A stretch of DNA of 37,618 nt from Planctomycetota bacterium (lineage in GTDB: Bacteria > Planctomycetota > Uabimicrobiia > Uabimicrobiales > Uabimicrobiaceae). The stretch is taken from the NCBI GenBank assembly GCA_029260735.1, contig JAJDCR010000012.1, positions 1 through 37,618 of the forward strand. Reading direction: 5' to 3'. Made by a program: the position numbers and the translations under genes. The notes beneath the pieces were generated by a model that was not told where the DNA came from, did no database searches, and worked only from the letters and a program-made list of their open reading frames with translations. Below, one piece after another: positions 7,678 to 28,066 of the stretch (the first letter of the stretch is position 1; each line of letters begins with the position of its first letter).

Positions 7678-7725
7678 AAAAATACTTACCATTTTCTACT
7701 AAAACAAAACAGAGAGGAGTTGCTT

Positions 7726-8526
7726 GTGCGTTTTAAACTTGAATTATCTGTTCATAAAACTAACAATATTTTACCCATCAATTATCAATATGAAGTTTCC
7801 TCATGGATTTATAAGGTTCTTCAGCAAGGAAACTTTGATTTTGCTAAGTGGCTACACAACGAAGGCTGCCAATGGCAAAACAAAAAATTCAAACTTTTAA
7901 CTTTTTCTCAGATATTTATTCAACCACAATGGAAAAGGGAAGGAGATCGCATTCATATTCTGAGTGGCAAAGCCTCTCTTCAGATTTCCTTTTATCTACA
8001 AGAAGCTGTTCAAAATTTCTTAATCGGAATATTTCAAGAACAACAATTCTCCATCGGTGACAGCAAAACAAGAGCTGAATTTCAAATCACAAAAGTAGAA
8101 CCTCTTCCCATCCCACGCTTTGAAAATGAAGCCGAGCTTTCATGCCTTTCTCCCATCGTCTTGTCTAAATATATAGATAACAAAAAACACCCGGAATACT
8201 TGTCTCCAGAGCATGAAGAATATAGCGAATATTTCTTTAACAACTTAATCCACAAGTACCTTATTGCTCATACAGCATCTTCAGATTCTTTTACTGACTT
8301 TAAGCGGGAAACAGAAAGAAAGTCTCCTCTAAAGTTAGAGCCTTTGTCGACTTCAAAATCCCGCCTGGTTAAAATCAAGGCAGGCAAAAAAGATGAAACA
8401 AAAATAAAGGGGTACATCCAGAAATTCAAAATAGTTGCTCCCTCTGAACTAATAGAGTTTGGTTATCATGCTGGATTTGGAGAAAAAAATGCCATTGGAT
8501 TCGGATATACGGAGGTTCTAAATTGA
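7726..8526 (+). CDS. cas6: CRISPR pre-crRNA endonuclease Cas6
   Basis: 266 residues from a GTG start at 7726, with AGGAG six bases upstream. A TTG two codons earlier overlaps that site and is less likely. Cas6 cuts the repeat transcript and stays on the crRNA. The C-terminal glycine-rich loop is clear (HAGFGEKNAIGFGYTEV), as is the N-terminal RAMP-like strand (FKLELSVHK). His44 in WLHNEG occupies the usual place of the catalytic histidine. It is the first gene of the cas operon. A 246-bp gap separates it from cas8, much longer than any other gap in the operon, and that gap holds a crRNA-like element. Confidence 0.92.
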   Translation: MRFKLELSVHKTNNILPINYQYEVSSWIYKVLQQGNFDFAKWLHNEGCQWQNKKFKLLTFSQIFIQPQWKREGDRIHILSGKASLQISFYLQEAVQNFLIGIFQEQQFSIGDSKTRAEFQITKVEPLPIPRFENEAELSCLSPIVLSKYIDNKKHPEYLSPEHEEYSEYFFNNLIHKYLIAHTASSDSFTDFKRETERKSPLKLEPLSTSKSRLVKIKAGKKDETKIKGYIQKFKIVAPSELIEFGYHAGFGEKNAIGFGYTEVLN

Positions 8527-8623
8527 AAATTTATCTTTTTCGAGAAAAAATGAAAAATAAAAAGTTTTTTTTCTTGAAATGCAAAAATAAAGCCGTAAGA
8601 TAAAAGCAACTACATAAAAAATC

Positions 8624-8661
8624 AATGTTATTGTAATTAGTATTATTTTATTGTAATTAGT
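8624..8661 (+). promoter_or_regulatory. Predicted target site of the crRNA-like RNA: two direct repeats 20 bp apart
   Basis: TTATTGTAATTAGT occurs at 8628-8641 and again at 8648-8661, exactly 20 bp apart, and a third time inside the pseudo-spacer (8702-8715). The first copy matches the first 17 nt of the pseudo-spacer perfectly (8625-8641 with 8699-8715) and is preceded by TCA (8622-8624) in the PAM position. After base 17 the match ends almost completely (1 of 14). The second copy has one mismatch in the seed and ATT in the PAM position. A pair of transcription-factor half-sites two helix turns apart is the alternative. Confidence 0.6.
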
Positions 8662-8676
8662 AATTGAACCAGAGTA

Positions 8677-8752
8677 GCTTTAAAAATGGAATTGAAAAAT
8701 GTTATTGTAATTAGTTACTACAATTAACTGTTTTAAATCGTACCAATTGTGG
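8677..8752 (+). ncRNA. Degenerate mini-CRISPR (CreA/CreR-like crRNA-like RNA)
   Basis: Between cas6 and cas8 lies pseudo-repeat 1 (8677-8698). It starts GCTTTAA and ends ATGGAATTGAAA, both exact to the array repeat, with the middle deleted, so the 3' handle region is kept. A 31-nt pseudo-spacer follows (8699-8729). Pseudo-repeat 2 (8730-8752) begins GTTTTAAATCGTACCAA, close to the array repeat's 5' half. Keeping the 3' half of repeat 1 and the 5' half of repeat 2 is what Cas6 processing into one crRNA-like RNA needs. A second repeat-like piece (TAATTGAACCAGA, 8661-8673) lies just upstream. No promoter could be assigned. A 17-codon mini-ORF (8550-8603) upstream and a 13-codon one within (8686-8727) could be toxin-like parts, but neither has a convincing ribosome site. 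Confidence 0.7.
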
Positions 8753-8772: not shown

Positions 8773-10599
8773 ATGCTGAAAGAAATTGTAGATTTCACCA
8801 GATATATCCAAAAAAACAGTCCCGACACTTTCACCCGAAACATATATCCCAAAGTAGGGCTACACTTGGAAGTTCACTTAGATAATTCTGGTAGCCTAAA
8901 AAAAGAACCTCAATATGAGGTTTTTCCTAAAGCCAAGATTCCTCCACCTCTTTCTTCTTTTTTAGAAAAGTGTTTGGCAAGGGAAATCCATACCAAGTGG
9001 GTGTCGGCCAACAAGGCTTTAGATTCAAAAAAGAAAATTCATACATGCTCTCCTTTTTCCGTAGCTTTTAAATTAAAAACAATAGAAGAGGTGAATGGGC
9101 GCTGGAAAGACTATTTTCAAACCGCGATAAACTATTGTCAAAGTGAAGAGCAAAAAGAACTGTCGAGACTTTTCCAAGGTTTTTGCCAAACCAACTTAAT
9201 TAAGTTGGTAGAGGAAACCATTCTAAAGTTAGAAAAACAAGAGGAAGGAAAGAAGAAAAAGACAACGCTGGGAAAAGATGACTACATTTACTGTTACTTA
9301 GGTAACGCAAGTCTGTCTTTTTATGAGGAAACTCACACCAACTATTTGAGAACAAAGGTTTTTAATAGCGAAAAATTTAATATAACCCTAGAAGAGCAAA
9401 CCTTTGGAGTCTCCGATTATCTTACAGGTTATAATGAAAAGAAGCCTTTTCTAAAGCACCACACAGCTCCCTTCTCGATCGGGACTCGAGTTACGACAGA
9501 CAATGCCGTCGACTTGTATCGTTTTTCTCAACTCCAGCAAAATAGACAACTTCCAATCCCCACTCCAATATTTGTAGATCAACAAGAGCATAATGTAGAA
9601 ATGATTCGTCTTTTCAATGAGACGGGAGAGAGAAAAAACTATCGATCCATCATAAAAGATTTACACGAGGAAAAATCTGAAAAACTATCAAGTTTTTATT
9701 TGTTGTTTTTTTATATGGGAGGAGTGAAAGATTTTGATTTTGTCCCTGTTTTCCAGTACGACATTTCCCTTCCTCATTTCCAAGATATTTGCGAGTTGTC
9801 AACATCTAAACACGTTTGGAAATTACAGTCTTACTCAATAGAGAATATCTTTGCATTCGAGACAGAGGTAGTGCAACGCATTTTTAACAATCAGCTAATC
9901 CAAAAAAACAAAGAAGGTCAGCTTCGCTTTCGTTACTTTGATGATCTTGAAAGTAACAAAATGCGCTCTGCTATTTTCCATATGGTATCAAGGTATAGAA
10001 AAAACTTCTACGACTACATATATAAAAGCCAAAAGCAAGCCGTTTCAAGAAGCATGTTCTCTGAAATCATGGAAACCTTGATTATCGATGATATAAAACA
10101 AGATGAAGTAAAAAATGACAAGCACACCAAAGAATACACCATTAAAGAAAAAATAAATATATGGTTCTCTCTAAACGAATTCTTTGTTAATGACACAGGA
10201 AAGGAAGAGATGAAAATGGCTCAAGAAATAGAGTTAGTCCGAGAAAAAATCAACGATATGGTCGAAAACTCCGAAATTGGTATAAAAAGTGATAACGAAT
10301 TTGCTTATGCAGCAGGACAAATCATTTATTACTTACTAAGTTGTAGCGAAGCGAGCAATAAAAAACATTCATTGCTAGAACCCTTTCTCCAAAAAAGCGA
10401 TTTAAAACAATTTAAATTAACCATTTCCAGAGTTTTTAATCAGTATAAACATGGCATTGGCTTTCACCACCTTCGATTCAATAATCTTGCAGCAAATGTA
10501 TTTTCTTACGAAACAAAGACAAATATAAAAGAGCTGACTCCAATGCTTTTAGCAGGATATTTTTCTAAAAATCGAATTTTTAAAGATAAAAACGACTAA
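8773..10599 (+). CDS. cas8b: Type I-B Cascade large subunit Cas8b (Csh1/TM1802-like)
   Basis: 608 residues, the usual size for Cas8b. It recognises the PAM and unwinds target DNA in Cascade. Sequence support is its place between cas6 and a Csh2-type cas7, and the C-terminal region NEFAYAAGQIIYYLLS...KKHSLLEPFLQKS, typical of Csh1/TM1802 proteins. I see no CxxC zinc-finger pairs. The ATG at 8773 follows GAAGGAAA, giving a reasonable ribosome site. The last ~127 codons look able to be translated separately as Cas11. The upstream gap holds the crRNA-like element, so transcription of cas8 and everything after it may be controlled there. Confidence 0.88.
   Translation: MLKEIVDFTRYIQKNSPDTFTRNIYPKVGLHLEVHLDNSGSLKKEPQYEVFPKAKIPPPLSSFLEKCLAREIHTKWVSANKALDSKKKIHTCSPFSVAFKLKTIEEVNGRWKDYFQTAINYCQSEEQKELSRLFQGFCQTNLIKLVEETILKLEKQEEGKKKKTTLGKDDYIYCYLGNASLSFYEETHTNYLRTKVFNSEKFNITLEEQTFGVSDYLTGYNEKKPFLKHHTAPFSIGTRVTTDNAVDLYRFSQLQQNRQLPIPTPIFVDQQEHNVEMIRLFNETGERKNYRSIIKDLHEEKSEKLSSFYLLFFYMGGVKDFDFVPVFQYDISLPHFQDICELSTSKHVWKLQSYSIENIFAFETEVVQRIFNNQLIQKNKEGQLRFRYFDDLESNKMRSAIFHMVSRYRKNFYDYIYKSQKQAVSRSMFSEIMETLIIDDIKQDEVKNDKHTKEYTIKEKINIWFSLNEFFVNDTGKEEMKMAQEIELVREKINDMVENSEIGIKSDNEFAYAAGQIIYYLLSCSEASNKKHSLLEPFLQKSDLKQFKLTISRVFNQYKHGIGFHHLRFNNLAANVFSYETKTNIKELTPMLLAGYFSKNRIFKDKND
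10216..10599 (+). CDS. cas11: Probable small subunit Cas11 from an internal start within cas8b
   Basis: In frame with cas8b, ATG codons at 10210 and 10216 (residues 480 and 482) follow a purine-rich site, AGGAAAGGAAG (10197-10207), with correct spacing. The product would be a helical ~127-residue protein (MAQEIELVREKIND...NEFAYAAGQ...HSLLEPF...). Internal translation of Cas11 from the 3' end of cas8 is established for several type I-B, I-C and I-D systems. Here it is inferred from the internal ribosome site and the helical, small-subunit-like sequence. Which of the two ATGs is used is unclear. Confidence 0.6.
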   Translation: MAQEIELVREKINDMVENSEIGIKSDNEFAYAAGQIIYYLLSCSEASNKKHSLLEPFLQKSDLKQFKLTISRVFNQYKHGIGFHHLRFNNLAANVFSYETKTNIKELTPMLLAGYFSKNRIFKDKND

Positions 10600-10664
10600 G
10601 CAGGTTTTTAAATAGTTATTCAATGCTTAAAAAAGAAATCATCGAATTTACAAGGAGAGATTTT

Positions 10665-11615
10665 ATGAGTGAATTCAAAAGTCGGGTTTTCGGATGTGTT
10701 ATTGTTAAAGCAATTAACTCCAACTACAATGCTGATTTTACCCATCAACCGCGAACCTTACCTGATGGTATTGTTTATGCTACAGATAAAGCGCTCAAGT
10801 TTAGTATTCGGCATTACTTAAAAGAACAGTACTCCAAAGAAATCATTTTCTTTTATAAAAATCTTAATGAAGAGTTGGTTCCTCGAACTCTTTCCGAAAG
10901 CTATGAAAACGTTTTTGGAGAGCTAAAAAAAGAAGAAAAAAATAAAGTTTTAACAAATCTTCTAGGGTGTTTAGATGTGCGCTTTTTTGGGGCCACTTTT
11001 GCTGCTAAAGGAAAAGGAGTTACTGTTAACTTGTCTATTCATGGCCCTGTTCAAATTAACCACGGAGTAAATCGATTTCCCAAAAATGAAATTTATTCTG
11101 AACAAATAATGTCTCCTTTCCGCAATCCAGGAAAAGAAGATGAGGAAGCTAAAGGAATGACAACATTGGGCCAACAATCGAAGCTACGAGAAGGCCACTA
11201 TGTTCATCATTTTTCAGTGAACCCAAGAAATCTTTATCCTCTGAAAAGTGCAGCCTCAGAAATCCCCTTGTTGACGGACGAAGATATTAAAAAACTCAAA
11301 GAAGCGATGACAACCGGCGTCACCTACTACGATTCAACTTCCAAAGCAGGTAGTGAAAACGAAATGCTAGTTTGGATAGAGCTGAAAGAAGAGTCAAAAC
11401 TGGTTTTACCAGTGCTAACGGAAATGATTAAAGTCGAACGAGAAAATGATATGGTTTATATCGACTTTAATAACCTCACAGAGCTTTTAAATAGCGTTTC
11501 CGAACATGTTTCTAGTCTTGAAATACACTATTCTCCTGAAACAACCAAGCTCGAAAATGAACCCAAGAATGCCCAATATTTTCACTTGGTAAATGGAAAA
11601 AAAATTCAATCTTAG
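10665..11615 (+). CDS. cas7: Cascade backbone subunit Cas7 (Csh2 family)
   Basis: 316 residues from the ATG at 10665, which follows a strong AAGGAG. Cas7 forms the filament that coats the crRNA spacer. Typical Csh2 phrases are SRVFGCVIVKAINSNYNAD, DVRFFGATFAAKG and the long loop SIHGPVQINHGVN...TTLGQQSKLREGHYVHHFS. An upstream in-frame ATG at 10623 would add 14 residues but lacks a ribosome site. Those extra codons read MLKKEIIEFTR, oddly like the start of Cas8b (MLKEIVDFTR). It lies 65 bp after cas8b and just before cas5. Confidence 0.92.
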   Translation: MSEFKSRVFGCVIVKAINSNYNADFTHQPRTLPDGIVYATDKALKFSIRHYLKEQYSKEIIFFYKNLNEELVPRTLSESYENVFGELKKEEKNKVLTNLLGCLDVRFFGATFAAKGKGVTVNLSIHGPVQINHGVNRFPKNEIYSEQIMSPFRNPGKEDEEAKGMTTLGQQSKLREGHYVHHFSVNPRNLYPLKSAASEIPLLTDEDIKKLKEAMTTGVTYYDSTSKAGSENEMLVWIELKEESKLVLPVLTEMIKVERENDMVYIDFNNLTELLNSVSEHVSSLEIHYSPETTKLENEPKNAQYFHLVNGKKIQS

Positions 11616-11628
11616 AGAGAAATATTTC

Positions 11629-12378
11629 ATGGATAAACTAATCTCTGTAGATTTTAAGGCTTCTTTTGGGTTTCTGAAAAAACCAGACATCAATGAAGGA
11701 GTCTATCTCACATTTAACATTTTGCATAAGCCTGCTTTCTTAGGAATTTTAGGAGCTATAGTCGGTCTGGAAGGATTTCAAAGTAAAGGTAAACTACCTG
11801 AGTACTACCAAAAATTGAAAAATCTCCTCATAGGAATCCAGCCTTTGCAAAGCCGACAAGGCAATTACGAAAAAATAATTTTAGCTTACAATAACTCTAC
11901 TGGTTATGCCAGTCGCGAGGAGGGAGGAAACTTAATTGTTTCGGAGCAAACACTTATAAAACCTTCTTTTCGCTGTTTTATTGGCTTAGAAGATAAAAAT
12001 CCATTGCACCAAGAAATCGACACTCACTTAGAAAAAAGACTAGCAGAGTATATCCCCTATTTGGGGAAAAATGACTTTTCCCTTTGGTGGGATAATTATC
12101 GAGAATACTCTTGGAGTCCATTTTCGTGTCAGAAAAACTTTACTTTAAAAACTATCTTCCAAAAACCTGAAAGAGTGGTTCCAATCGTTGATTATGATGG
12201 TAACTCTAAAAACGAATTTATCTATTTTGAAAGACTCCCTATTCAGTTTGATGAAAAGCTATTACAGTACCAGTACGCAAACTTTGTCTTTACAAACTAT
12301 CTTCTAGACAAAGACAACCATATCGAAAATACTTTTCAACTTGAGGGACACGAGGATAATGTCATCCAACTCATCTAA
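11629..12378 (+). CDS. cas5: Cascade subunit Cas5 (type I-B)
   Basis: 249 residues. Cas5 caps the 5' handle of the crRNA. The N-terminus MDKLISVDFKASFGFLKKPD is the RAMP strand typical of Cas5h, followed by ILHKPAFLGILGAIVGLEGF. The ATG at 11629 has AGAGAG upstream and follows the cas7 stop. An ATG at 11593 would overlap cas7 by 23 bases and add 12 unconserved-looking residues. The 3' end overlaps cas3 by 20 bases, so the two are probably translationally coupled. Confidence 0.9.
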   Translation: MDKLISVDFKASFGFLKKPDINEGVYLTFNILHKPAFLGILGAIVGLEGFQSKGKLPEYYQKLKNLLIGIQPLQSRQGNYEKIILAYNNSTGYASREEGGNLIVSEQTLIKPSFRCFIGLEDKNPLHQEIDTHLEKRLAEYIPYLGKNDFSLWWDNYREYSWSPFSCQKNFTLKTIFQKPERVVPIVDYDGNSKNEFIYFERLPIQFDEKLLQYQYANFVFTNYLLDKDNHIENTFQLEGHEDNVIQLI

Positions 12379-15055
12379 TAAAAATCCAGTGAGTTTCCAG
12401 AATATAGCCCAAGAGAAGCTAATCTTTTGGGAAAAACTTCCTGCGGATAAAATCTATTACGCTCACACTTCTTCAGGGAAAAAGAAAGAAACTCTCAAAG
12501 AACATACCGATTTGGTAACAAAATATACCTTGAAAATTTTGGATAAATTTTGTTTAGAAACGCCTATCGATCAATTTAGTAAAGAATTTTGCTCAGTTTT
12601 TCAAATAAAAGATACTCTTCTTGGGCAGCGTTTTTTCAAGCAACTGTTTTTGAATGCCATCATTTACCATGACCTTGGAAAAATAAACGAAAACTTTCAA
12701 TACCATAAGATGGAAAACTCTGCTTTCTCGGAAAATCCAAAAAACGCCATCGGAACCAAGCACTCCATTTTAAGTGCTTATCTCTATGTTGTTCATCACA
12801 TTGCCGAAGTAAAAAAACACTTCACTGGATTAGAAAGACAAAGATTTTTTTATCTTGTCTTTTTATTTGCTTGCTCCATAAAAAAGCACCACTCCTCTTA
12901 CTTGAGCTTCCAAAAAGCACTAAGATATAAACCCGAGATTAAAAAATTAGATAGCTATTTAGTTTTTTTAGGTATAGAGGAAGAAGATAAAAAAGACGCT
13001 CTCCATCAATTTGATAGGTGTGAGACAATTGAAATTTTTTTTTATAAAGATGATATAAAAAAAGAAAATTTGTCTTTCCTTTTTATTCTCCTCAAACTTC
13101 ATTTCTCTATTCTGACAGCAGCGGATTTTTATGCGACCTCTGAATATATGCAAAATCTAAAGATAGAAGATTTTGGTCTTTTCAAAAAAGCAGATACGAC
13201 AAAATTGCACCGCCAGTTTTGGGACTACAAGCACAATCAAAAACTACATAAAAACTTTCATTTTTATGAAAATTTAACATCCCAAGAACTATTCACCCAT
13301 AGCCAAGACAATCTCAACTTGCTTCGTCAAAAAATGCTAGCAGAAGTGATTGCTAATATTCGCCAACATCCCGAAGAAAATATTTTTTATTTAGAAGCCC
13401 CGACGGGAGCAGGAAAAACCAATATCTCTCTGGCTATTGCCCTGGAACTTATGCTAAAAAATGAAAATCTCAATAAGATTTTTTATGTCTTTCCCTATAC
13501 CGCAATAGCCACTCAAACCTTCAAAAAAATAAAAGACACTTTAGGTATCGGCAACGAGACCATCATAGAGCTTCACTCTAGGGCTGGATTTCACAATAAA
13601 ATAGAAGAAGAAAAAAATGATGGATTCTATGGAGACGAACGCTATAACTATTTAGATAATTTATTTTTAAACTATCCCCTCGTTTTACTCACGCATGTTC
13701 GTTTTTTTGAAATCCTAAGTGGTAATAGCAAAGAATCTAATTACCTAATGCACCGATTGGCAAACTCGATAGTTATTATTGACGAACTCCAGTCCTATCC
13801 TCCGCATATCTGGGACAAAATTTGCTATTTCATTTGTCAGTATTCTCGTTACCTCAACATGAAATTTTTATTCATGTCAGCAACTTTACCCAAGCTAGGG
13901 GATATCAATCCTTCCCTTACCAAGGGAACCGTTTTTTTTCCTCTGGTCAAAGAAAAATCGGACTATTTCCAAAATCCCAATTTTAAAAACAGAGTACAAT
14001 TTGACTTTTCTTTTCTCGATAAACAAATAGATTCTGTGGAAAAATTAGCTCCTCAAGTAAAAGCCATTTGCGAACAATACTACTCCCAGAAGGGGCACAT
14101 AAAATGTCTTGTTCAATTTATTACCAAGAGAAGTGCCCGTGTTTTTCGGCACAATATAGAACAATCAAAACTATTTCAAGGATATGATATATATTTGCTT
14201 TCGGGAGATATTCTGGAGCACAAACGGCAAGAAATAATTGACATAATAAAAGATACATCCGATGAGAGTCACAAAATTTTACTAATCTCGACCCAAGTTA
14301 TAGAAGCTGGGGTCGACATAGACATGGATATTGGATTTAAAAACAAAGCTTTAATCGATAACGAAGAACAGGTTGCAGGTCGTATCAATAGGGAAAACTC
14401 TAAGATAAACTCGGTTCTTTATATCTTTGAAATTGATGAGGCCAAAACAGTTTACCGAGATGATTTACGCTGTAAAGTTATGACAAGCGAAGAAATTTCT
14501 GAAGAATACAAAAACATCTTACAAAACAAAGATTTTGATAAGCTATACCAACTTGTTTACGAAAAAATCAACCGAAAAAATAAAGATCCCTTGATCGAAA
14601 ATCTATCTTCCTACCAAAAAAACATGGCATCCTTAGATTTAGAAAAGGTCAAAGAAGGCTTAAAAATTATTAAGCAAACAACCTACTCCATTTTTGTACC
14701 TCTCAAGATACCCGAAGAGACATTTTCGAACACAGAAAAAGAGTTTCTCCAAAGCCAAAAAGCTTACCAAGGAGAAAATAAAATCGATGGAGAAAAAGTA
14801 TGGAAACTTTACCAAAGTTTCATAAAAGCAAAGGACCTGGAATTAATCCAAAAAAAAGCAGGAATCAAAAAAATATATGGAATAATCTCAAAATATATTT
14901 TCTCTGTTCATAGCAAACAAAAAGATGATCTTTTACACTATACCGATCCAGAGAATTCCTTTGCTGGTATTTTATATCTATCGCACCATGAAAAAATATA
15001 TAGTGAAGAAGAAGGACTTAAGCCAGAAGATTTTCAAGATGGGTATTGTTTATGA
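12359..15055 (+). CDS. cas3: CRISPR nuclease-helicase Cas3
   Basis: 898 residues from ATG 12359 (GAGG just upstream). Cas3 unwinds and degrades DNA marked by Cascade. The N-terminal HD nuclease has KEHTDLV (H49), IIYHDLGKINENF (H104, D105), TKHSILSAY and a KKHHSSY cluster. The SF2 helicase follows: Walker A EAPTGAGKTN near residue 346, DELQ in IIDELQSYPP near 475, MSATLP near 506, STQVIEAGVDIDMD and AGRINR near 671. All key residues look intact. It overlaps the end of cas5 and shares ATGA with the start of cas4. Confidence 0.96.
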   Translation: MSSNSSNKNPVSFQNIAQEKLIFWEKLPADKIYYAHTSSGKKKETLKEHTDLVTKYTLKILDKFCLETPIDQFSKEFCSVFQIKDTLLGQRFFKQLFLNAIIYHDLGKINENFQYHKMENSAFSENPKNAIGTKHSILSAYLYVVHHIAEVKKHFTGLERQRFFYLVFLFACSIKKHHSSYLSFQKALRYKPEIKKLDSYLVFLGIEEEDKKDALHQFDRCETIEIFFYKDDIKKENLSFLFILLKLHFSILTAADFYATSEYMQNLKIEDFGLFKKADTTKLHRQFWDYKHNQKLHKNFHFYENLTSQELFTHSQDNLNLLRQKMLAEVIANIRQHPEENIFYLEAPTGAGKTNISLAIALELMLKNENLNKIFYVFPYTAIATQTFKKIKDTLGIGNETIIELHSRAGFHNKIEEEKNDGFYGDERYNYLDNLFLNYPLVLLTHVRFFEILSGNSKESNYLMHRLANSIVIIDELQSYPPHIWDKICYFICQYSRYLNMKFLFMSATLPKLGDINPSLTKGTVFFPLVKEKSDYFQNPNFKNRVQFDFSFLDKQIDSVEKLAPQVKAICEQYYSQKGHIKCLVQFITKRSARVFRHNIEQSKLFQGYDIYLLSGDILEHKRQEIIDIIKDTSDESHKILLISTQVIEAGVDIDMDIGFKNKALIDNEEQVAGRINRENSKINSVLYIFEIDEAKTVYRDDLRCKVMTSEEISEEYKNILQNKDFDKLYQLVYEKINRKNKDPLIENLSSYQKNMASLDLEKVKEGLKIIKQTTYSIFVPLKIPEETFSNTEKEFLQSQKAYQGENKIDGEKVWKLYQSFIKAKDLELIQKKAGIKKIYGIISKYIFSVHSKQKDDLLHYTDPENSFAGILYLSHHEKIYSEEEGLKPEDFQDGYCL

Positions 15056-15570
15056 GCAGACAAATTAGAGTCACGGGAACTCATATGAACTACTACCATA
15101 TATGCAAAAGAGAGCTCTGGCTTTTTGCTCATGATATTCGTATGGAGCATTCCTCTTCTTTGGTCTCAGAAGGACGCTTTATTCACGAGAACACTTATCC
15201 TCAAAGAGCCTCTCGTTACCAAGAAGTTCAAATCGAAGGAATAAAAATTGATTTTTACGATGCTAAAAACAAAGTCGTTCATGAAATCAAAAAATCAAAC
15301 AGAGCAGAGAAGGCTCATATTTGGCAAGTCAAATACTACATTTATGTGCTTCAGCAAAAAGGAATTTGTGAGGTCACCGGAGTCTTAGAGTACCCTAAAT
15401 TACGAGAAACTAAAAAAATAGAACTTCTTCCTGAGGACGTTCCTTACATAGAAACAACGATTACAGAAATTCAAGCGATTATCGCAAGTCCAACTTGTCC
15501 TCCTCGTTTAGCCAAGAAGCACTGCCAAAATTGCTCCTATTTCTATTTTTGTTGGAGTGGAGAAGGCTAA
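15052..15570 (+). CDS. cas4: CRISPR adaptation exonuclease Cas4
   Basis: 172 residues from the ATG at 15052, which overlaps the cas3 stop (ATGA). Cas4 trims prespacers and helps choose the PAM and orientation. The RecB-like nuclease motifs are present: GIKIDFYD, VHEIKKS (ExK) and QVKYYIYVL (QxxxY). The iron-sulfur cysteines are one near the N-terminus (YYHICKRELW) and three at the C-terminus (HCQNCSYFYFCW). This is the usual short Cas4 of type I-B. The stop codon is followed directly by the cas1 ATG, so adaptation genes are tightly coupled. Confidence 0.95.
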   Translation: MSRQIRVTGTHMNYYHICKRELWLFAHDIRMEHSSSLVSEGRFIHENTYPQRASRYQEVQIEGIKIDFYDAKNKVVHEIKKSNRAEKAHIWQVKYYIYVLQQKGICEVTGVLEYPKLRETKKIELLPEDVPYIETTITEIQAIIASPTCPPRLAKKHCQNCSYFYFCWSGEG

Positions 15571-16575
15571 ATGAAAAAAACATACTATCTATTTAATCCA
15601 GGACGTTTAGTCCGCCAAGATAACACTTTAAAATTTATCCCTGTCAACGAAGATGGTGAAGAGGAAAAACCTCGTTTTCTTCCTGTAGAAGGGACAAGCG
15701 ACTTGTATATATTTGGTTCCCTCGATGCCAATAGTGCTCTCTACAATTTTTTGGCAAAGAACCAAATCATGGTTCATTTTTTCGACTTTTATGAAAACTA
15801 CACCGGTTCTTTTATGCCCAAAGATTATCTATTGGCAGGAAAAATGCAAGTGGAACAAACCCTTGCTTATGCTCAAAGCGAAAAAAGGCTAGCTATTGCC
15901 CGTTTAATCCTAGAAGGAGCGAGCTATAATATTCTAAAAAATATTCGATACTACAATAGCAGAGGCAAAGACTTAGAAACAGAAATAGAGAGAATTGAAA
16001 ATCTTGCTCGGCAAATTCCAGAATCTAACCAAATAGAAGAATTGATGGGAATAGAAGGAAATATTCGCCAAGTCTACTACATCGCATTTGATAAAATACT
16101 CAACCATTTGCAAATGGGAGGAAGAACAAGACAACCTCCACTCAACGAGATCAACGCCCTAATTTCTTTTGGAAATATGATGTGCTATACAACCTGTCTT
16201 AAGGCTATACATCATACTCAACTTAATCCAACGATCAGTTTCCTTCACGAACCCGGTAGTCGAAGATATTCTTTAGCATTAGATTTAGCTGAGATTTTTA
16301 AACCCATTCTAGTAGATCGAATCATTTTCCGGGTCATAAACAAAAAAGAGATTACGGAAAAAGATTTCTCTAAAGAACTCAATAAATGCCTTCTCAAGGA
16401 AAAAGGAAGAAAAAAGTTTATTTCGGCATACCAAGAAAAACTTAAAGAAACCATAAAACATCGAACTCTCAAAAGAAATGTCAGTTACGAACGACTAGTC
16501 AAAATGGAATGCTACAAATTGAGTAAACATATTCTAAATATCGAAGAGTATAAACCTTTCAAAATTTGGTGGTGA
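15571..16575 (+). CDS. cas1: CRISPR integrase Cas1
   Basis: 334 residues, normal length. Cas1 with Cas2 inserts new spacers at the leader end. The metal-binding residues are visible: E162 in IEGNIRQVYY, H226 in FLHEPGSRRYSL and E241 in LAEIFKPILVD. The N-terminal beta domain starts KKTYYLFNPGRLVRQDNTL. It starts on the base after the cas4 stop and ends three bases before cas2. All catalytic positions are intact, so adaptation should be functional. Confidence 0.96.
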   Translation: MKKTYYLFNPGRLVRQDNTLKFIPVNEDGEEEKPRFLPVEGTSDLYIFGSLDANSALYNFLAKNQIMVHFFDFYENYTGSFMPKDYLLAGKMQVEQTLAYAQSEKRLAIARLILEGASYNILKNIRYYNSRGKDLETEIERIENLARQIPESNQIEELMGIEGNIRQVYYIAFDKILNHLQMGGRTRQPPLNEINALISFGNMMCYTTCLKAIHHTQLNPTISFLHEPGSRRYSLALDLAEIFKPILVDRIIFRVINKKEITEKDFSKELNKCLLKEKGRKKFISAYQEKLKETIKHRTLKRNVSYERLVKMECYKLSKHILNIEEYKPFKIWW

Positions 16576-16578
16576 AAA

Positions 16579-16842
16579 ATGTATGTAATAGCGGTATACG
16601 ATGTCAACCAAAAGCGCGTAGGAAAAATGCTCAAGCTCTTCCGCCAGTACCTACACTGGATTCAAAACTCTGTTTTTGAAGGAGAAATTACGAAAGTAAA
16701 ACTCCTAGAGCTCAAAAAAAAAGCCGAAGAAATTATGAAAAAAGAAGAAGATAGTCTGATAATATTTCAAAGTCGAGACAAAAAATGGCTCGATAAAGAA
16801 ATTATCGGCTGTGATAAAAATCCCCTCGATATGTTCCTATAG
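16579..16842 (+). CDS. cas2: CRISPR adaptation protein Cas2
   Basis: 87 residues with a ferredoxin-like fold. The first strand MYVIAVYDVNQKRVGKML carries the usual aspartate (D8), followed by FRQYLHWIQNSVFEGEI. Cas2 dimers bridge two Cas1 dimers in the integration complex. It is the last gene of the operon. The leader and array begin right after it. Confidence 0.95.
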   Translation: MYVIAVYDVNQKRVGKMLKLFRQYLHWIQNSVFEGEITKVKLLELKKKAEEIMKKEEDSLIIFQSRDKKWLDKEIIGCDKNPLDMFL

Positions 16843-17148: not shown

Positions 17149-20100
17149 GCTTTAATCGAACCAAGATGGAATTGAAATACTCTACAGGTTAATGGCCATA
17201 ACCTTTTCGAGATCCATGCTTTAATCGAACCAAGATGGAATTGAAATCTCGAAACACAAAGTAAAGGATTATTCCAAAAAATGCTTTAATCGAACCAAGA
17301 TGGAATTGAAATAAGAAAAAGACAAGCCAAAGCGAAAAAGAAAATCTGGGCTTTAATCGAACCAAGATGGAATTGAAATATATTTTGGGGTATGAGATTG
17401 AGCCGAACATGTTTGCTTTAATCGAACCAAGATGGAATTGAAATCAACAGAGTTAGAAGTGAAAGAAGCTACTCAAGACGATAGCTTTAATCGAACCAAG
17501 ATGGAATTGAAATCCAATAAATAGGAGATAACTCAAAATGACAGTTGAGCTTTAATCGAACCAAGATGGAATTGAAATGGAATGAACCGGAACCAGAACC
17601 GGAACCACTTCCAGCTTTAATCGAACCAAGATGGAATTGAAATAGGCTACTCGCGGAATGGAGGAAGAAAAGATAATCGCTTTAATCGAACCAAGATGGA
17701 ATTGAAATCTGACTCCGTGATTGCCCTAGAAACGTCTGGATCTGTAGCTTTAATCGAACCAAGATGGAATTGAAATTAGAGTTGACCATCCCAACGACTA
17801 TAGGAGAGCCCCGCTTTAATCGAACCAAGATGGAATTGAAATGAGCAGATTTAGAGAGCAATCCATACAGAAATGCCTCGCTTTAATCGAACCAAGATGG
17901 AATTGAAATCAGTCAGGACAATGTGTCCGGTCGTGTATAAGGGTTGTGCTTTAATCGAACCAAGATGGAATTGAAATCAAGAATATAAGGCACGTCTTCT
18001 CTGAAAACCTTTCGCTTTAATCGAACCAAGATGGAATTGAAATAAAATTTGCCAAAGATAGAGCACAAAGATCCTTTCGCTTTAATCGAACCAAGATGGA
18101 ATTGAAATGCGATAGAGAAAATCCCTGTAGTGGAGGCATACAGCTTTAATCGAACCAAGATGGAATTGAAATCTTGATTAGCTAGGTTATTGTCTTTAAA
18201 CTTTACAAGCTTTAATCGAACCAAGATGGAATTGAAATCGAACTTTACTTGAGCCAACAACAATAATTTTTTTAGCTTTAATCGAACCAAGATGGAATTG
18301 AAATCTCCTCGATTAAGAGCTTGTTTTTCAAGCTCGTCTGGCTTTAATCGAACCAAGATGGAATTGAAATTCATAGTGTTTCTTGGGATCATTCCTTTTC
18401 TTAAGCTTTAATCGAACCAAGATGGAATTGAAATCCGGAGAGCATATCATGTTGGGCTCTCTCCCTTCGAGCTTTAATCGAACCAAGATGGAATTGAAAT
18501 AGCGGAGGTGCTTTGGCTATATTTTCTTTATCCTTAGCTTTAATCGAACCAAGATGGAATTGAAATATAAACAGGACGATTGGCAGAATAGCCCACCCAA
18601 GGGAGTGCTAGCTTTAATCGAACCAAGATGGAATTGAAATTAATAAAACTCTCCTAAAAAAATCCCTCCCATATGGGAGGGATAAGCTTTAATCGAACCA
18701 AGATGGAATTGAAATCGCTAGTCGATTGGAGAGAAGCTGCTACCCCCGTAGTGCTTTAATCGAACCAAGATGGAATTGAAATTCATTTCCTGTGCCGTAA
18801 TCAACGACATGGATAACGCTTTAATCGAACCAAGATGGAATTGAAATTCGCTCATCTTGCTGGAGTAAACAATAAGCTTGTCGCTTTAATCGAACCAAGA
18901 TGGAATTGAAATTACTCCCTAATAGGGCTTTCCTGTACTGCCTCAACCGCTTTAATCGAACCAAGATGGAATTGAAATTCCGATGTAGGCATTGTTCCCA
19001 TGTCTATCCTCTAAAGCTTTAATCGAACCAAGATGGAATTGAAATTTTTAAAGAGTCTTACATGATACACTGCTTAGAGCTTTAATCGAACCAAGATGGA
19101 ATTGAAATGGTGTAAAACCTATGGTGCAACCTGTCGTTTTTATTGCTTTAATCGAACCAAGATGGAATTGAAATAGGAGAAAAACATGGATCACCAAGAA
19201 ATTTTAAACCAGCTTTAATCGAACCAAGATGGAATTGAAATCAAGAAAAACATTATCACTCATGATATTTTTCTCCGCTTTAATCGAACCAAGATGGAAT
19301 TGAAATAGGAACCATAGAGGGAAAGAGCATCTATTATCAGGGCTTTAATCGAACCAAGATGGAATTGAAATCGCTTTGTTTTGTCGTGCTTGTCTCTCAC
19401 TGTCGCTTTAATCGAACCAAGATGGAATTGAAATTAGGAGTACAAATAAGCGATGAAAAACAAGGAGCAAGCTTTAATCGAACCAAGATGGAATTGAAAT
19501 ACTGAACAAGCTTGGTAAGAGACAAGTTCTTCGCGGACTAGGCTTTAATCGAACCAAGATGGAATTGAAATGAGGAAAATTTCTTTCCTTTGTACGAAAA
19601 AACCTCTCCGCTTTAATCGAACCAAGATGGAATTGAAATGAGAGAATAATTGGCGCGACTCTGGGGATTCTAGCTTTAATCGAACCAAGATGGAATTGAA
19701 ATTGGTTGTTTTCGATGGGGATGTTTTTGCTTGGAGCTTTAATCGAACCAAGATGGAATTGAAATAAGGTAAGCGGTATGACCATTTCTTGCGCCGTATA
19801 GCTTTAATCGAACAAAGATGGAATTGAAATAGGAAGTTATAGAGGAGTATCCCGCATGACTTTTAAGCTTTAATCGAACCAAGATGGAATTGAAATTCGG
19901 GAATGATAAAGCTATTACCGATAGTTTTAGGCTTTAATCGAACCAAGATGGAATTGAAATAGGCACTTTTACTGGAGCTTTTAAAATATGGGGCTTTAAT
20001 CGAACCAAGATGGAATTGAAATACTCCAAAAAAAAACACTGACAAAAGCCAGCGTTTTTGCTTTAATCGAACCAAGATGGAATTGAAATTAGCACTTCTT

Positions 20101-20419
20101 CGCTTCCTCTAACTGCCCCAAAGCCAGCTTTAATCGAACCAAGATGGAATTAAAATTGGGAAAGGTCGTAGTGATTAGAGTCCCCAAAATTAAGTTTTAA
20201 TCGAACCAAGATGGAATTAAAATGCAAAACATAGCGGTCAAAATCAAGTGACTTAATAGACGCTTTAATCGAACCAAGATGGAATTGAAATAATAGAATC
20301 GGTAGCTTGGGTTTCCGAACTAAGAGGCTTTAATCTAAGCAAGATGGAATTGAAATAAGGTGCCGATGGCGTCATCGACCGCCGCCTCTAAGACAGCTTT
20401 AATCGAACCAATATGGAAT
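17149..20419 (+). CRISPR. Type I-B CRISPR array, 50 repeats and 49 spacers
   Basis: The repeat is 30 bp, starting GCTTTAATCGAACC and ending ATGGAATTGAAAT, so the crRNA 5' handle is ATTGAAAT. Spacers are 32-45 nt, mostly 35-37. Repeats 1-45 are identical except repeat 41 (19801; C to A at position 14). The distal end decays: repeats 46 and 47 (20127, 20194) share G to A at position 26, 47 also has C to T at position 2, 49 (20327) has two changes, and 50 (20396) loses its last six bases. Decay at this end and the cas2-side leader give the same orientation: newest spacers at 17179. The array stops 18 bp from the stop codon of the convergent TPR gene. Spacer 23 holds a 22-bp palindrome, and spacers 45 and 48 match the neighbouring TPR gene family. 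Confidence 0.98.
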
Positions 20420-20437
20420 CACACACACCTTTCCACC

Positions 20438-22168
20438 TCAATCCCCCAAGCGACGCAACTCCTCTCGTACCAACTTGTTTCCAGGCTCCGCCTCAAGAAC
20501 CTGCTCATAGTACATTCTCGTTTCCTCTAACTGCCCCAAACCCAAATAAACCCTTGCCATGTTGTAGTTTGCATCGGTATCTCGTGGGTTTATAGCAAGC
20601 ACTTCTCGATAGTGATATATCGCTTCTTGCCACTTTCCTCGTTCGGCATAGAGGGTTCCTAGGTTATTGTGGGTTTCGAGGTGGTGGGGTTCTATTTTTA
20701 GAGCTTGCTTGTAGTGCTTTATGGCTTCTTGGACTTTGCCTTGTTTTTCGAGGGCATTTGCGATGTTATAGTGGGCGATGGCGATGTGTATATCGAGGTT
20801 AAGAGAGCGTTGGTAGTATTCTAGGGCTTGGTTAATTTTGCCTTGTTTTTCTAGGATGGTGCCTATGTTGTTGTGGGCGGTGGCGGAATTGGGGGCTTGG
20901 TGGAGGGCTTTTTCGTAGTATTGGATTGCTTGGGGGAGATTGCCTTGTTTTTCGTAGGCTTTGCCGAGGTTATTGTAGGCCATGGTTTGGTTTGGGTAGC
21001 TTGTTATGGCGTGGTGCCATAGTTTTTCGGGGGTTTGCCAGGTGGGGAGTTGGGTGTGGGTGCGATAGCTGAGAAAGAAAATTAAGATGATAGCAAGCAA
21101 TAAATATTTCTTAGAGTATTTTTCTGAGAGTAGTAGGGCGGGGCCTAGAAGGGAGAGGTACAGGTAGCGGTCGGCTACGGTGGAGTGGTTTTGGAAAGCG
21201 AAGGGGATTAGGCCAGAGACGGGGAGAAATCCTAGGATAAATATGGCTAGAGGGACGATTAGGGGGGAGAGTTTTTTTTGGTAGTAGAGTGTTACGCTTA
21301 GGGCTAAAAGAGGGAGGATGGCTAAGAGGAAGTGGCTTTGATTTATGATGTGCTCGGGGGTTCTTCCGTAGGAGACGCACAGGTTAAAGGGCCAGAGTAG
21401 TTTGCTTAAGTAGAAGTTGAAAGCGTCGGCGAAAATGAAAGGTCGTAGAGCGATGGGGGGAACAAATTCGAGAGCTTGGGTCGGTTGAGCTAGTTTGGTT
21501 GTGATTACAATAATTAGGGTTATGATAATCCAGGGGCTTAAAGTAAGGAGGAGTTTTCGGGGAGAGGTTTGGTGGAAAAAAATTGCCAGGGTTGCGGCAA
21601 AGAGGGGAATAACTGCTCCTAGGGGTTTTGCGAGAAGAGATAGGAGTAGAAAAAGAGTAGCTATGATGTAAAGAGAGATATGTGCTCTTTCCTTTATATA
21701 GATCAAAAACAGTAGCAATGCACTTAAACCAAGAAACGAAGAAAGAAGTCCTCGTAGTTCGGAAACCCAGGCGACAGATTCGACTTGGAGGGGATGGAGG
21801 AGAAAGAGCAGGGTTCCAAAAAAGGAGCCCCAAGGGTTTTTGCTAAGATAGTGGAGGAGGGCAAAAACGAGGAGTCCATTTAAGATGTGTAGAGTTATAT
21901 TTGCTAGATGATAGGGGTAGGGATTAAAGCCCGTTTCATTTTTCAGTAGAGCCCAGGTTGTGTAGCTTACAGGGATATACATTCCGACGTAGGGCTTTTG
22001 CCAAATCTGAAGGAGAGATTGGGTGCTGACTTTTTGTAGGCTTGGGTGATTTTGGTGGAGATAGTCGTCCCAGACAAATTCATAGTTTACGGCAGGAAAA
22101 AAAATTATGAATGGTATTAAAATCAAGAGAAAGATTTTCACTTTTGATTCGGCTAGAAATTTACTCAT
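20438..22168 (-). CDS. TMTC/GT-C-like multi-membrane protein with C-terminal TPRs (paralogue A)
   Basis: 576 residues. An N-terminal region of about ten membrane segments carries the GT-C-like acidic pair after helix 1 (EFVWDD, D34-D35) and the family block HPLQVESVAWVSELRG. About five TPRs follow (from AYNNLGKAYEKQGN). This resembles TMTC-type O-mannosyltransferases, which use lipid-linked sugar on the outer face of the membrane. The bacterial acceptor is unknown. It is the last and shortest member of the five-gene operon, and its start overlaps the stop of the upstream gene by eight bases. Its 3' end faces the CRISPR array 18 bp away. Spacer 45 matches 20508-20544 within it (31/37). Confidence 0.8.
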   Translation of the reverse strand: MSKFLAESKVKIFLLILIPFIIFFPAVNYEFVWDDYLHQNHPSLQKVSTQSLLQIWQKPYVGMYIPVSYTTWALLKNETGFNPYPYHLANITLHILNGLLVFALLHYLSKNPWGSFFGTLLFLLHPLQVESVAWVSELRGLLSSFLGLSALLLFLIYIKERAHISLYIIATLFLLLSLLAKPLGAVIPLFAATLAIFFHQTSPRKLLLTLSPWIIITLIIVITTKLAQPTQALEFVPPIALRPFIFADAFNFYLSKLLWPFNLCVSYGRTPEHIINQSHFLLAILPLLALSVTLYYQKKLSPLIVPLAIFILGFLPVSGLIPFAFQNHSTVADRYLYLSLLGPALLLSEKYSKKYLLLAIILIFFLSYRTHTQLPTWQTPEKLWHHAITSYPNQTMAYNNLGKAYEKQGNLPQAIQYYEKALHQAPNSATAHNNIGTILEKQGKINQALEYYQRSLNLDIHIAIAHYNIANALEKQGKVQEAIKHYKQALKIEPHHLETHNNLGTLYAERGKWQEAIYHYREVLAINPRDTDANYNMARVYLGLGQLEETRMYYEQVLEAEPGNKLVREELRRLGD

Positions 22169-24128
22169 TTTTTTCTTGTTCTCGATAAATTTGTTCTAGG
22201 TTTTGTTGAGCAGTTTTATTTTTGGGATCGATCTCTAATGTTTTCTGGTAATGCTCTATCGCTTTTTTGGTTTTCTTTATTTGATAAAATATAGCTGCTA
22301 AATTTAGGTGGAGCAAAGCTTGTTTTGGTCGAATTTGGAGAGCTTGTTTGTAGAGTTCAATGGCTTTATTGTTTTGGCCTTGTTTTCGGGCAATGTTTGC
22401 TAGATTATTGTAGGCTTGGAAATATTTGGGAGAAAACTCTATTGCTTTGTAGTAGTGGTGTTGGGCTTCAGCGATCTTGTTTTGTTTACGAAAGAGAGTT
22501 GCTATGTTGTAGTGTACTATGGCTAAAGATGACTTTTCTTGGAGGGCTTTTTTGTAGAAAGCGAGGGCTTCGGTTTGCTTTCCTTGTTTTTCGTAAGTAT
22601 ACCCCAGATTATTGAGTATCATAGGATTACGAGGATTCTTTTTTAGAGCGAATGTATAATGAGTGATCGCGGCATTTACTTGTCCTATATCGCTTAGAAA
22701 ATTGCCATAGTTATAGCGAATTATCGCAGACTCAGGATTGAGTTTAACTGCTTGAGCAAAGTAATTTTCAGCTTGTTCGTATAGCTTTTTTTTACAAAAA
22801 GCGTTTCCTAGATTATTGTAGGAATCTGCGTAGCTAGGATCACACTCTATTGCAAGAAAATAATGTTCCATCGCAAGCTCTTTTTTGTTATCACTAGAAA
22901 AAGCACTTCCTAAGTTGTTGTGAGCAACAGCTTGTTTAGGATATTTGCGAAGAACATTTTCCCAAAGGGTGATATCGTTTTTCCAAAAGGAAATTTGAGA
23001 TCGGCTTTGCCATCCCCACAAAGAAAGGATCAATACCCAAATGATTATCCCGAGATTTTTTTGGGGGGGATAAAAAGCTAAAAGTAAGGCCGGACCCAGC
23101 ATTCCTAAGTATAAATAGCGATCTGCTACGGTGGAGTAGCTTTGGAAAGCGAAAGGGATTAAACCTGAGACAGGCAAAAAACTGACAAGAAAAATAGCTC
23201 CTGTTATTAAAAGCTTGGAATAAAAAACAGGAGATGCGTTTTTCCTTTTGTGGAGGATATAGAGTAAAACAGTTCCTGGAATCCATACCCAAAAGAGATA
23301 CCACTGTTCCATAACAAACTGAGGAGATCTCCCATACAAAGCACATAAATCAAAGGGAAAGAACAATTTAAGGAAATAGAAATTTAGGGCATCTAAAGTA
23401 ATTAAGGGGCGTAAAAACAGAGGACAGAGAAACTCAATTTTACTATCAGGCTGAAGAATTTTTGTAATAACAATGATCAACAGGGAAATAGGTAGCCATA
23501 AAGCCCAGGTTTTGTTTTTACTTCGTAGAAGGGTATGGTCGATAATTCCTACGATAATAGGAAGTACTACTACATTGGGTTTAGCGAGGGTCGCCAAGAG
23601 AAAAGAAATAGTCGCTAGAAAAAAATAAAGGCGTTGCTCTTGTTTTCGGTAGAGAAGATAAAGGCCCAAGGCGCTAAAGCTGAGAAAACAGCTCAGAAGT
23701 CCTCTTAGTTCGGAAACCCAAGCGACGGATTCTATCTGGATGGGGTGGAGAAGAAAGAGAAGTGAGCCCAGAAGAGAACCGCGGTGGTTTGAGGTCAAAG
23801 ACTTTAAAAGAAAATAGAGAAGTAGACCATTGGCGATATGGAGAAATAGATTGCAAAGGTGATAGTGAAAAGCAGAAAAACCGTTGGCTTCTCCCGAGAT
23901 ACATTTAATTATCCCCCAGAGGGTATAGGTTACAGGTATATACATTCCAGTGTAAGAGTTTGTCCAAAAATATACTAGGTTGCTTGGAGTAATTTCTTCC
24001 AGATGAGGATTACCATGCAAATGATAGATCCGATCGTCCCAGGCAAAATCAAGATGTACCACTTGCCAAAAAAGTGCTAAGGGTACCAAGGTTAGCAAAA
24101 GTATAGTTAAAAAGTGGGGCAAGCGCAT
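22161..24128 (-). CDS. TMTC/GT-C-like multi-membrane protein with C-terminal TPRs (paralogue B)
   Basis: 655 residues from the ATG at 24128, one base after the stop of the upstream paralogue. A start at 24191 would overlap that gene and precede the first membrane helix with an unrelated basic stretch. Membrane region: FAWDDRIYHLHGNPHL with the paired aspartates, then HPIQIESVAWVSELRG and ADRYLYLGMLGPALL. At least seven TPRs follow (AHNNLGSAF, SYNNLGNAF, ILNNLGYTYEKQG, AYNNLANIARKQG and others). Spacer 48 of the array matches 23702-23736 (32/35), the codons for IESVAWVSELR. Confidence 0.8.
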   Translation of the reverse strand: MRLPHFLTILLLTLVPLALFWQVVHLDFAWDDRIYHLHGNPHLEEITPSNLVYFWTNSYTGMYIPVTYTLWGIIKCISGEANGFSAFHYHLCNLFLHIANGLLLYFLLKSLTSNHRGSLLGSLLFLLHPIQIESVAWVSELRGLLSCFLSFSALGLYLLYRKQEQRLYFFLATISFLLATLAKPNVVVLPIIVGIIDHTLLRSKNKTWALWLPISLLIIVITKILQPDSKIEFLCPLFLRPLITLDALNFYFLKLFFPFDLCALYGRSPQFVMEQWYLFWVWIPGTVLLYILHKRKNASPVFYSKLLITGAIFLVSFLPVSGLIPFAFQSYSTVADRYLYLGMLGPALLLAFYPPQKNLGIIIWVLILSLWGWQSRSQISFWKNDITLWENVLRKYPKQAVAHNNLGSAFSSDNKKELAMEHYFLAIECDPSYADSYNNLGNAFCKKKLYEQAENYFAQAVKLNPESAIIRYNYGNFLSDIGQVNAAITHYTFALKKNPRNPMILNNLGYTYEKQGKQTEALAFYKKALQEKSSLAIVHYNIATLFRKQNKIAEAQHHYYKAIEFSPKYFQAYNNLANIARKQGQNNKAIELYKQALQIRPKQALLHLNLAAIFYQIKKTKKAIEHYQKTLEIDPKNKTAQQNLEQIYREQEKNE

Positions 24129-24129
24129 C

Positions 24130-28052: not shown

Positions 28053-28066
28053 GAGAAGGCGCTCTG

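What the first reader, a model, noticed from the sequence alone, without database searches (positions are those of the whole stretch)
8624..8752. CreA/CreR-like crRNA-like gene between cas6 and cas8 with a 17-nt seed match to an adjacent site
Seen: pseudo-repeat 1 keeps the exact 3' half (ATGGAATTGAAA) plus the first seven bases of the array repeat. Pseudo-repeat 2 keeps the 5' half. Between them is a 31-nt pseudo-spacer. Its first 17 nt match 8625-8641 perfectly, after which the match drops to 1 of 14, and that site is flanked by TCA. Known: CreA antitoxin RNAs (haloarchaeal type I-B CreTA) and CreR RNAs are degenerate mini-CRISPRs that use a short seed match to guide Cascade to repress a nearby promoter without cutting. 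In Haloarcula hispanica creTA also lies between cas6 and cas8. Inference: here such an RNA would repress transcription entering cas8-cas2, its own gene, or a hidden CreT-like toxin. A bacterial type I-B example with a duplicated target would be new to me.
Basis: partly seen in the sequence, partly recalled or inferred. Interest (0 to 1): 0.93.

Follow-up and report, generated by a model that had tools for sequence, protein, structure and literature searches.

The report
CRISPR guide RNA silencing its operon
Between the CRISPR genes cas6 and cas8 of a bacterium related to Candidatus Uabimicrobium sits a tiny two-repeat CRISPR whose first 17 spacer bases match a TCA-flanked site just upstream; it is predicted to make a guide RNA that would turn the cell's own CRISPR genes down rather than cut DNA, a known kind of switch (CreR), and ten distant relatives carry the same design.

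Summary
In the 246-bp cas6-cas8 gap of a type I-B operon, two degenerate repeats enclose a 31-nt pseudo-spacer (8699-8729). Its first 17 nt match 8625-8641, flanked by TCA; then 1 of 14. A repeat-only rule applied upstream of cas8 in 97 relatives gave 11 candidates outside arrays; ten have a matching site in the same region. In 11 of 11 members (window included) the best site is flanked by TCA (10) or CCA (1), although the flank was not used to choose it. In the relatives the mismatches fall at positions 6 and 12, which a Cascade guide does not pair: 4 mismatches elsewhere, against 18-21 for the other five phases. Swapped spacer-region pairs almost never score as well. This is the signature of published CreA/CreR RNAs. 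With no toxin-like ORF after the target, autorepression of cas8-cas2 (CreR) is likelier than a toxin pair. Expression, Cas6 cutting and repression are untested. The kind is known; here the RNA gene lies in the sense direction, inside the likely cas8 leader, whereas in the ten relatives it lies on the opposite strand.

The parts
7720..8526 (+). cas6 (mechanical ORF from TTG; true start not settled)
   Evidence: Pfam Cas_Cas6_C 4.9e-26 and Cas6_I-A; NCBIfam TIGR01877 above cut-off
8574..8601 (+). candidate sigma-70-like promoter TTGAAA-16-TAAGAT, upstream of the target
   Evidence: consensus match only; 3 sites found in the region, 2.4 expected by chance
8622..8624 (+). TCA flank, read as the PAM of the target
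   Evidence: sequence; TCA or CCA at the best site in 11 of 11 members, flank not used for the choice
8625..8655 (+). target protospacer; first 17 nt (8625-8641) identical to the pseudo-spacer
   Evidence: only exact site for the 17-base pattern YCA plus guide positions 1-14 (6 and 12 free) in the own genome
8645..8661 (+). second, imperfect copy of the target (16 of 17, mismatch at position 3; flank ATT)
8677..8698 (+). pseudo-repeat 1, shortened in the middle; predicted Cas6 cut before ATTGAAAA (8691-8698), the 8-nt 5' handle
   Evidence: cut site inferred from the 8-nt 5' handle of CreA (PMC8501985)
8699..8729 (+). pseudo-spacer; positions 1-17 are the guide part
8730..8752 (+). pseudo-repeat 2 (5' half kept, 3' half degenerate)
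8773..10599 (+). cas8b (Csh1-like), first gene of the operon likely repressed
   Evidence: no Pfam/NCBIfam match; 295 homologues, two named Csh1 among the best 16
10623..16842 (+). cas7, cas5, cas3, cas4, cas1, cas2 (overlapping or closely spaced, rest of the operon)
   Evidence: Pfam/NCBIfam
17149..20373 (+). CRISPR array, repeat GCTTTAATCGAACCAAGATGGAATTGAAAT
   Evidence: limits approximate

Best explanation
The gap between cas6 and cas8 holds a mini-CRISPR, two degenerate repeats around a 31-nt pseudo-spacer whose first 17 nt match a TCA-flanked site 74 bp upstream, and it is predicted to yield a Cas6-cut, CreR-like guide RNA with which Cascade would bind that site and likely repress its own cas8-cas2 operon. 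Shown: the anatomy, the match, its register to the first spacer base, the TCA flank, and the same design in ten relatives with mismatches confined almost wholly to guide positions 6 and 12. Inferred: transcription, Cas6 cutting before 8691, binding without Cas3 attack because pairing stops after position 17, and repression. Because the RNA gene lies downstream of its target and in the sense direction, the same transcript would carry the guide and the cas8 message, so that CreR would limit both its own making and Cas production. Ordinary crRNAs would compete for Cascade and lift the block when the array is busy; anti-CRISPRs that disable Cascade would do the same (as reviewed for CreR, PMC12737573).
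For: Repeat-only scan: 9 mini-CRISPRs among 78 upstream regions incl. the window, each with a YCA-flanked target; 2 more among 20 new loci, both with targets. Spacer-region swaps: 0 of 693 reach the own score; for the two later ones 0 of 97 and 1 of 97. Phase test on 10 relatives: 4 mismatches outside positions 6/12 versus 18, 20, 20, 20, 21 for the other phases. Flank at the best site, not used in choosing it: TCA 10, CCA 1 of 11; YCA is 3.3% of positions. TCA and CCA fit the YYD PAM of the T. maritima I-B system (PMC13199841 passages). In 5 of 9 relatives with a minus-strand target a Bacteroidota-type TAnnTTTG lies 13-24 nt beyond the PAM-proximal base, P about 4e-7 at the local rate for a 10-26 nt window set after seeing the offsets (motif per PMC7366714 passages). 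Cas6 lies upstream of the gap in 6 of 6 tested of the ten. Published CreA pairs at 1-5 and 7-11 and tolerates changes at 6 and 12 (PMC8501985 passages).
Against: No expression data and no close relative: of 149 genomes searched, own included, only the own and one other (weak, 7.9e-16) match cas8. Only 10 of 97 relatives carry the element by this rule; 14 of the 97 regions are shorter than 1500 bp. The rule and the 6/12 idea were formed after a looser look at the same loci; only L133 and L139 are out of sample. One candidate (L056) has no target; L139 is equalled by 1 of 97 swaps. In L111 the unmasked best site is another, unflanked one that ties with the YCA site. The window differs from the relatives: sense strand, unbroken match including positions 6 and 12, and no flanking stem (10 of 20 swaps as stable; RNA fold z-score 0). 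The promoter prediction is at chance level. Pseudo-repeat 2 lacks a recognisable 3' half, so the 3' end is uncertain. The array's own PAM could not be measured.
Confidence: 0.75

Rival explanations
1. CreTA-type module: the guide RNA represses a small toxin gene rather than cas8, making the cell dependent on Cascade.
For: H. hispanica creTA lies between cas6 and cas8 (PMC8501985 passage). Some relatives have short ORFs after the target, e.g. a 39-aa CxxC ORF in L102 and a 70-aa ORF in L087.
Against: In the window no ORF of 18 codons or more lies between target and cas8; a 13-codon ORF at 8686 lies inside the RNA gene itself. CreT toxins can be tiny RNAs, so this is not excluded.
Confidence: 0.1
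2. Relic: a minimal CRISPR left over from a self-acquired spacer, no longer transcribed or processed.
For: Both repeats are degenerate; pseudo-repeat 1 is shortened and pseudo-repeat 2 has lost its 3' half. No expression data.
Against: A 17-nt guide match with PAM is intact; ten relatives keep seed pairing with mismatches almost only where pairing is not needed, which decay would not give.
Confidence: 0.08
3. Plain operator: three TTATTGTAATTAGT boxes are binding sites of a protein regulator, and the CRISPR-like features are incidental.
For: Three boxes, two of them 20 bp apart.
Against: No box near cas6, the leader or elsewhere in the window with up to 2 mismatches. The match starts exactly at spacer base 1 and is flanked by TCA. 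Relatives keep the guide-target relation with unrelated sequences.
Confidence: 0.05

Closest known systems
CreR (cas-regulating RNA; Liu et al. 2023 Cell Host Microbe, not held, seen only as a reference entry; reviewed in PMC12737573, passages and section 9 read)
   Same: crRNA-like RNA gene at a cas locus; partial complementarity to the region before the cas operon; no toxin gene apparent; reported for types I-B, I-E, V-A (PMC13131331 passage)
   Different: Here in a Uabimicrobium-like planctomycete, on the sense strand between target and cas8, with a 17-nt unbroken guide match and a second imperfect site; repression not tested. Whether published CreRs include this layout could not be checked
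CreA of haloarchaeal type I-B CreTA (PMC8501985 passages and section 14; PMC9458426 abstract and introduction)
   Same: two degenerate repeats, pairing at 1-5 and 7-11, PAM beside the target, cas6-cas8 gap in H. hispanica, CreA also regulates the promoter of its own module
   Different: PAM TTC there, TCA/CCA here; no toxin seen here; bacterial
scaRNA/Cas9 and tracr-L autorepression (scaRNA in PMC9458426 introduction; tracr-L recalled)
   Same: CRISPR effector reused as a repressor by a short guide match
   Different: type II Cas9, other RNA architecture

Membership tests
CreR | crRNA-like gene: repeat-derived sequences flanking a spacer-like sequence outside the array | tested here: met
CreR | limited complementarity to DNA ahead of the cognate cas operon, with a PAM | tested here: met
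   17 nt, TCA. That the site is a promoter in this genome: not shown
CreR | pairing pattern of a Cascade guide (positions 6 and 12 free) | tested here: met
   met across 10 relatives; the window itself matches at 6 and 12 too, so it is silent on this point
CreR | Cas6-processed RNA bound by Cascade | not testable with these tools
   needs small-RNA sequencing
CreR | represses its own cas operon | not testable with these tools
   needs reporter or deletion
CreA (CreTA) | paired toxin gene under the targeted promoter | tested here: inconclusive
   no ORF of 18 codons or more between target and cas8; tiny RNA toxins not excluded
CreA (CreTA) | two degenerate repeats giving 5' and 3' handles | tested here: inconclusive
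   5' handle sequence kept; pseudo-repeat 2 keeps the 5' half; processing untested
Type I-B CRISPR-Cas | cas6-cas8b-cas7-cas5-cas3-cas4-cas1-cas2 with repeats ending ATTGAAA | tested here: met
   Cas1b and Cas5b above cut-off, Cas7 best NCBIfam match Csh2 below its cut-off (Pfam Cas7 above), Cas8 by homology only

The most novel reading that the evidence does not exclude
The cas8-cas2 message carries its own brake: CreR is cut by Cas6 out of the leader of the very mRNA it represses, so each transcript is at once messenger and source of guide, and two tandem sites 20 bp apart let one guide place Cascade twice. Cas6 cutting of the leader would add a second, post-transcriptional feedback on cas8. 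The antisense relatives would be the separately transcribed form of a broad family, mostly in Bacteroidota.
Probability: 0.3. Interest if true: 0.7.

Novelty: new member of a known kind. Interest (0 to 1): 0.52.

Why it matters
It extends RNA-guided self-control of CRISPR-Cas to a Uabimicrobium-like planctomycete. It also gives a comparative, controlled signature (position-6/12 mismatches plus PAM) by which such regulators can be found where no biochemistry exists. Ten further cases can be followed up, three of them under isolate names in the records (Chitinophaga qingshengii, Mongoliitalea lutea, 'Cellulophaga sp. BC115SP'). If the sense-strand layout works as inferred, it is a compact feedback in which one transcript makes both Cas proteins and their repressor guide.

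Tried and rejected
Hidden toxin: looked for ORFs after the target; none of 18 codons or more. Protein operator: boxes not found elsewhere in the window. Known RNA family: one sub-threshold Rfam match, rteR, 21.5 bits against a gathering score of 72, E 0.71, taken as chance. Independent PAM from the array: no phage record matched the array, and 20-base pieces of two of its spacers had no exact match in viral contigs; stopped there. RNA structure: the window's RNA folds no better than shuffles; a stem flanking the mini-CRISPR is strong in L055, L057, L102 and L133 (0 of 20 swaps as good) but not in the window (10 of 20). Trans targets: the minimal pattern YCA plus positions 1-5 and 7-11 has 4 exact sites in the own genome incl. 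this one (control 0); the longer 17-base pattern has only this one exact, and its five one-mismatch sites are no more than the reversed control gives (9). The other three minimal sites were not examined. My first scan of sense-strand repeats alone missed the antisense relatives; they were seen on reading the gaps and then scanned on both strands. A laxer scan also shows L089, L109 and L112 with YCA sites and mismatches mainly at 6, 8, 12, 13 or 18; they were found post hoc and are left out of all counts. Rows dropped before counts: loci L076, L086 and L094 (cas8 start missing); L159, L160 and L166 (partial or weak matches) and re-fetched copies of loci already held; three L080 candidates (judged by eye an ordinary short array; no YCA target). 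L056 is kept as the one miss. For L075, L112, L158 and L165 the region ends at the first matched residue (23 to 185 of the query), not at the true cas8 start.

Full report
WHAT IS THERE. The window holds one type I-B locus: cas6, a 246-bp gap, cas8b, cas7, cas5, cas3, cas4, cas1, cas2 and a CRISPR array with the repeat GCTTTAATCGAACCAAGATGGAATTGAAAT. Cas8 is named by homology only. The genome (8.71 Mb, 174 contigs, 83% complete) has RpoB 74% identical to that of Candidatus Uabimicrobium amorphum, and the other named hits are planctomycetes, so I call it a Uabimicrobium-like planctomycete.

THE OBSERVATION. The repeat 12-mer is absent from 5000 shuffles of the gap, and no shuffle gives a prefix match above 13. 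The longest repeat in the gap (18 nt) is not beyond the most extreme of 2000 shuffles (19), so the weight lies on register and flank, not on repetitiveness.

RELATIVES. An alignment of 32 Cas8 proteins brought in 80 loci, the best of 112. I scanned up to 1.5 kb before cas8 in 77 of the 80 (three lack the start of cas8), plus the window, on both strands, with a rule that uses repeat features only: RGWATTGAAA with at most 1 mismatch and AATCRNACCA 15-50 nt further, at most 2 mismatches in all. The rule was written after a looser look at the same loci. 13 candidates came out: three are a short array in L080 (judged by eye), one is L056, nine are mini-CRISPRs (L055, L057, L075, L087, L102, L110, L111, L118 and the window). 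Three family searches (222, 295 and 344 genomes) gave 20 new loci, of which two carry the element (L133, L139); these two are the out-of-sample cases. So 10 of 97 relatives have it. All ten lie on the strand opposite to cas8; the window's lies on the sense strand. Cas6 precedes the gap in 6 of 6 tested; in L110 the frame found upstream did not look like Cas6 and was not tested, and L118, L133 and L139 were not examined (one search stopped).

THE SIGNATURE. With positions 6 and 12 ignored, the ten relatives show 4 mismatches in all in their best sites over positions 1-13; ignoring any other phase leaves 18, 20, 20, 20 or 21 (the phase with three ignored positions gives the 18). Unmasked, the best site of seven of the first eight is the same YCA site, and mismatches fall at 6 in six and at 12 in six of the eight best sites. 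L111 is the exception (a tie with another site); L075 matches 16 nt unbroken. Without using the flank, the best masked site is preceded by TCA in 10 and CCA in 1 of 11, against 3.3% YCA overall. The spacer start was free within three bases and came out the same (one base after GAAA) in all nine. Swapping spacers and regions: 0 of 693, then 0 of 97 for L133 and 1 of 97 for L139. L056 is the one candidate without a target. Guide bases 6 and 12 of a type I crRNA do not pair, and experiments on H. hubeiense CreA show that only 1-5 and 7-11 matter (PMC8501985, passages). The signature therefore reports selection for Cascade-guide pairing, in guides that differ from locus to locus.

WHERE THE SITE LIES. 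In 5 of 9 relatives with a minus-strand target a TAnnTTTG, the Bacteroidota -7 element (PMC7366714, passages), lies 13-24 nt beyond the PAM-proximal base; about 0.2 of 9 would be expected at the local rate (window set after seeing the offsets). In 8 of these 9 the target-PAM edge reads TTG on the cas strand, like part of a -33 element, but two of the three bases follow from the PAM itself, and the spacing to TAnnTTTG varies (read by eye). So in the relatives the guide likely sits on a promoter. For the window no promoter stands out: TTGAAA-16-TAAGAT at 8574-8601 would place the site just after the start of transcription, but such matches are at chance level here.

MECHANISM. Likely order of events: a transcript entering the gap carries the mini-CRISPR and then cas8; Cas6 cuts before 8691; Cascade loads the RNA, finds TCA plus the seed, binds 8622-8655 and blocks transcription; pairing ends after position 17, so full interference is not expected. 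Array crRNAs compete for Cascade and so set the level (as reviewed for CreR, PMC12737573 section 9). In the own genome the site at 8622 is the only exact one for the 17-base pattern. The second copy at 8645-8661 may hold another Cascade, but its ATT flank does not fit YCA or the YYD PAM of T. maritima (PMC13199841, passages), so I give it little weight.

KNOWN OR NEW. CreR is a published kind, reported for I-B, I-E and V-A (PMC13131331, one passage; original paper not held, its content recalled). In one search three papers held at least three of crRNA-like, cas operon, autoregulat and Planctomycet, and none of them held the last; I saw no planctomycete or Bacteroidota CreR in the listings either. 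This is a statement about that library only. I file it as a new CreR member with the repression step untested. Its own traits are the sense-strand place in the likely cas8 leader, the unbroken 17-nt guide match and the second imperfect site.

Noticed in passing
L102:5462-5581, L087:973-1185 and the L055 gap: Small ORFs between the guide target and cas8 in some relatives (39 aa with CxxC pairs in L102, 70 aa in L087; a similar CxxC frame read by eye in L055). They would be the first gene under the repressed promoter: small partner, toxin or leader peptide.
   Followed up: partly
L055, L057, L102, L133 mini-CRISPRs: The 5' arm of pseudo-repeat 1 pairs with the 3' arm of pseudo-repeat 2 in a long stem (0 of 20 arm swaps as stable in each), enclosing the guide; not in the window.
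   Followed up: partly
L055, L139 and other relatives: Pseudo-spacers in relatives are short (about 16-29 nt by the script's estimate; 32 for the window by the same estimate).
   Followed up: no
L118: Only relative of the ten in which the target lies on the strand opposite to the mini-CRISPR.
   Followed up: no
G000:C39:31818-32789 (L178): A second, divergent Cas1 domain in a 574-codon open frame in the same genome, below the Cas1b cut-off.
   Followed up: no
window 20438-30040 and 31298-37522: Five large paralogous ORFs in a row and two larger related ones; TPR-like by eye, no family search made.
   Followed up: no
G000:C77:5202, C127:92453, C162:18843: Three further exact YCA plus minimal-seed sites in the own genome; possible trans targets or chance.
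   Followed up: no
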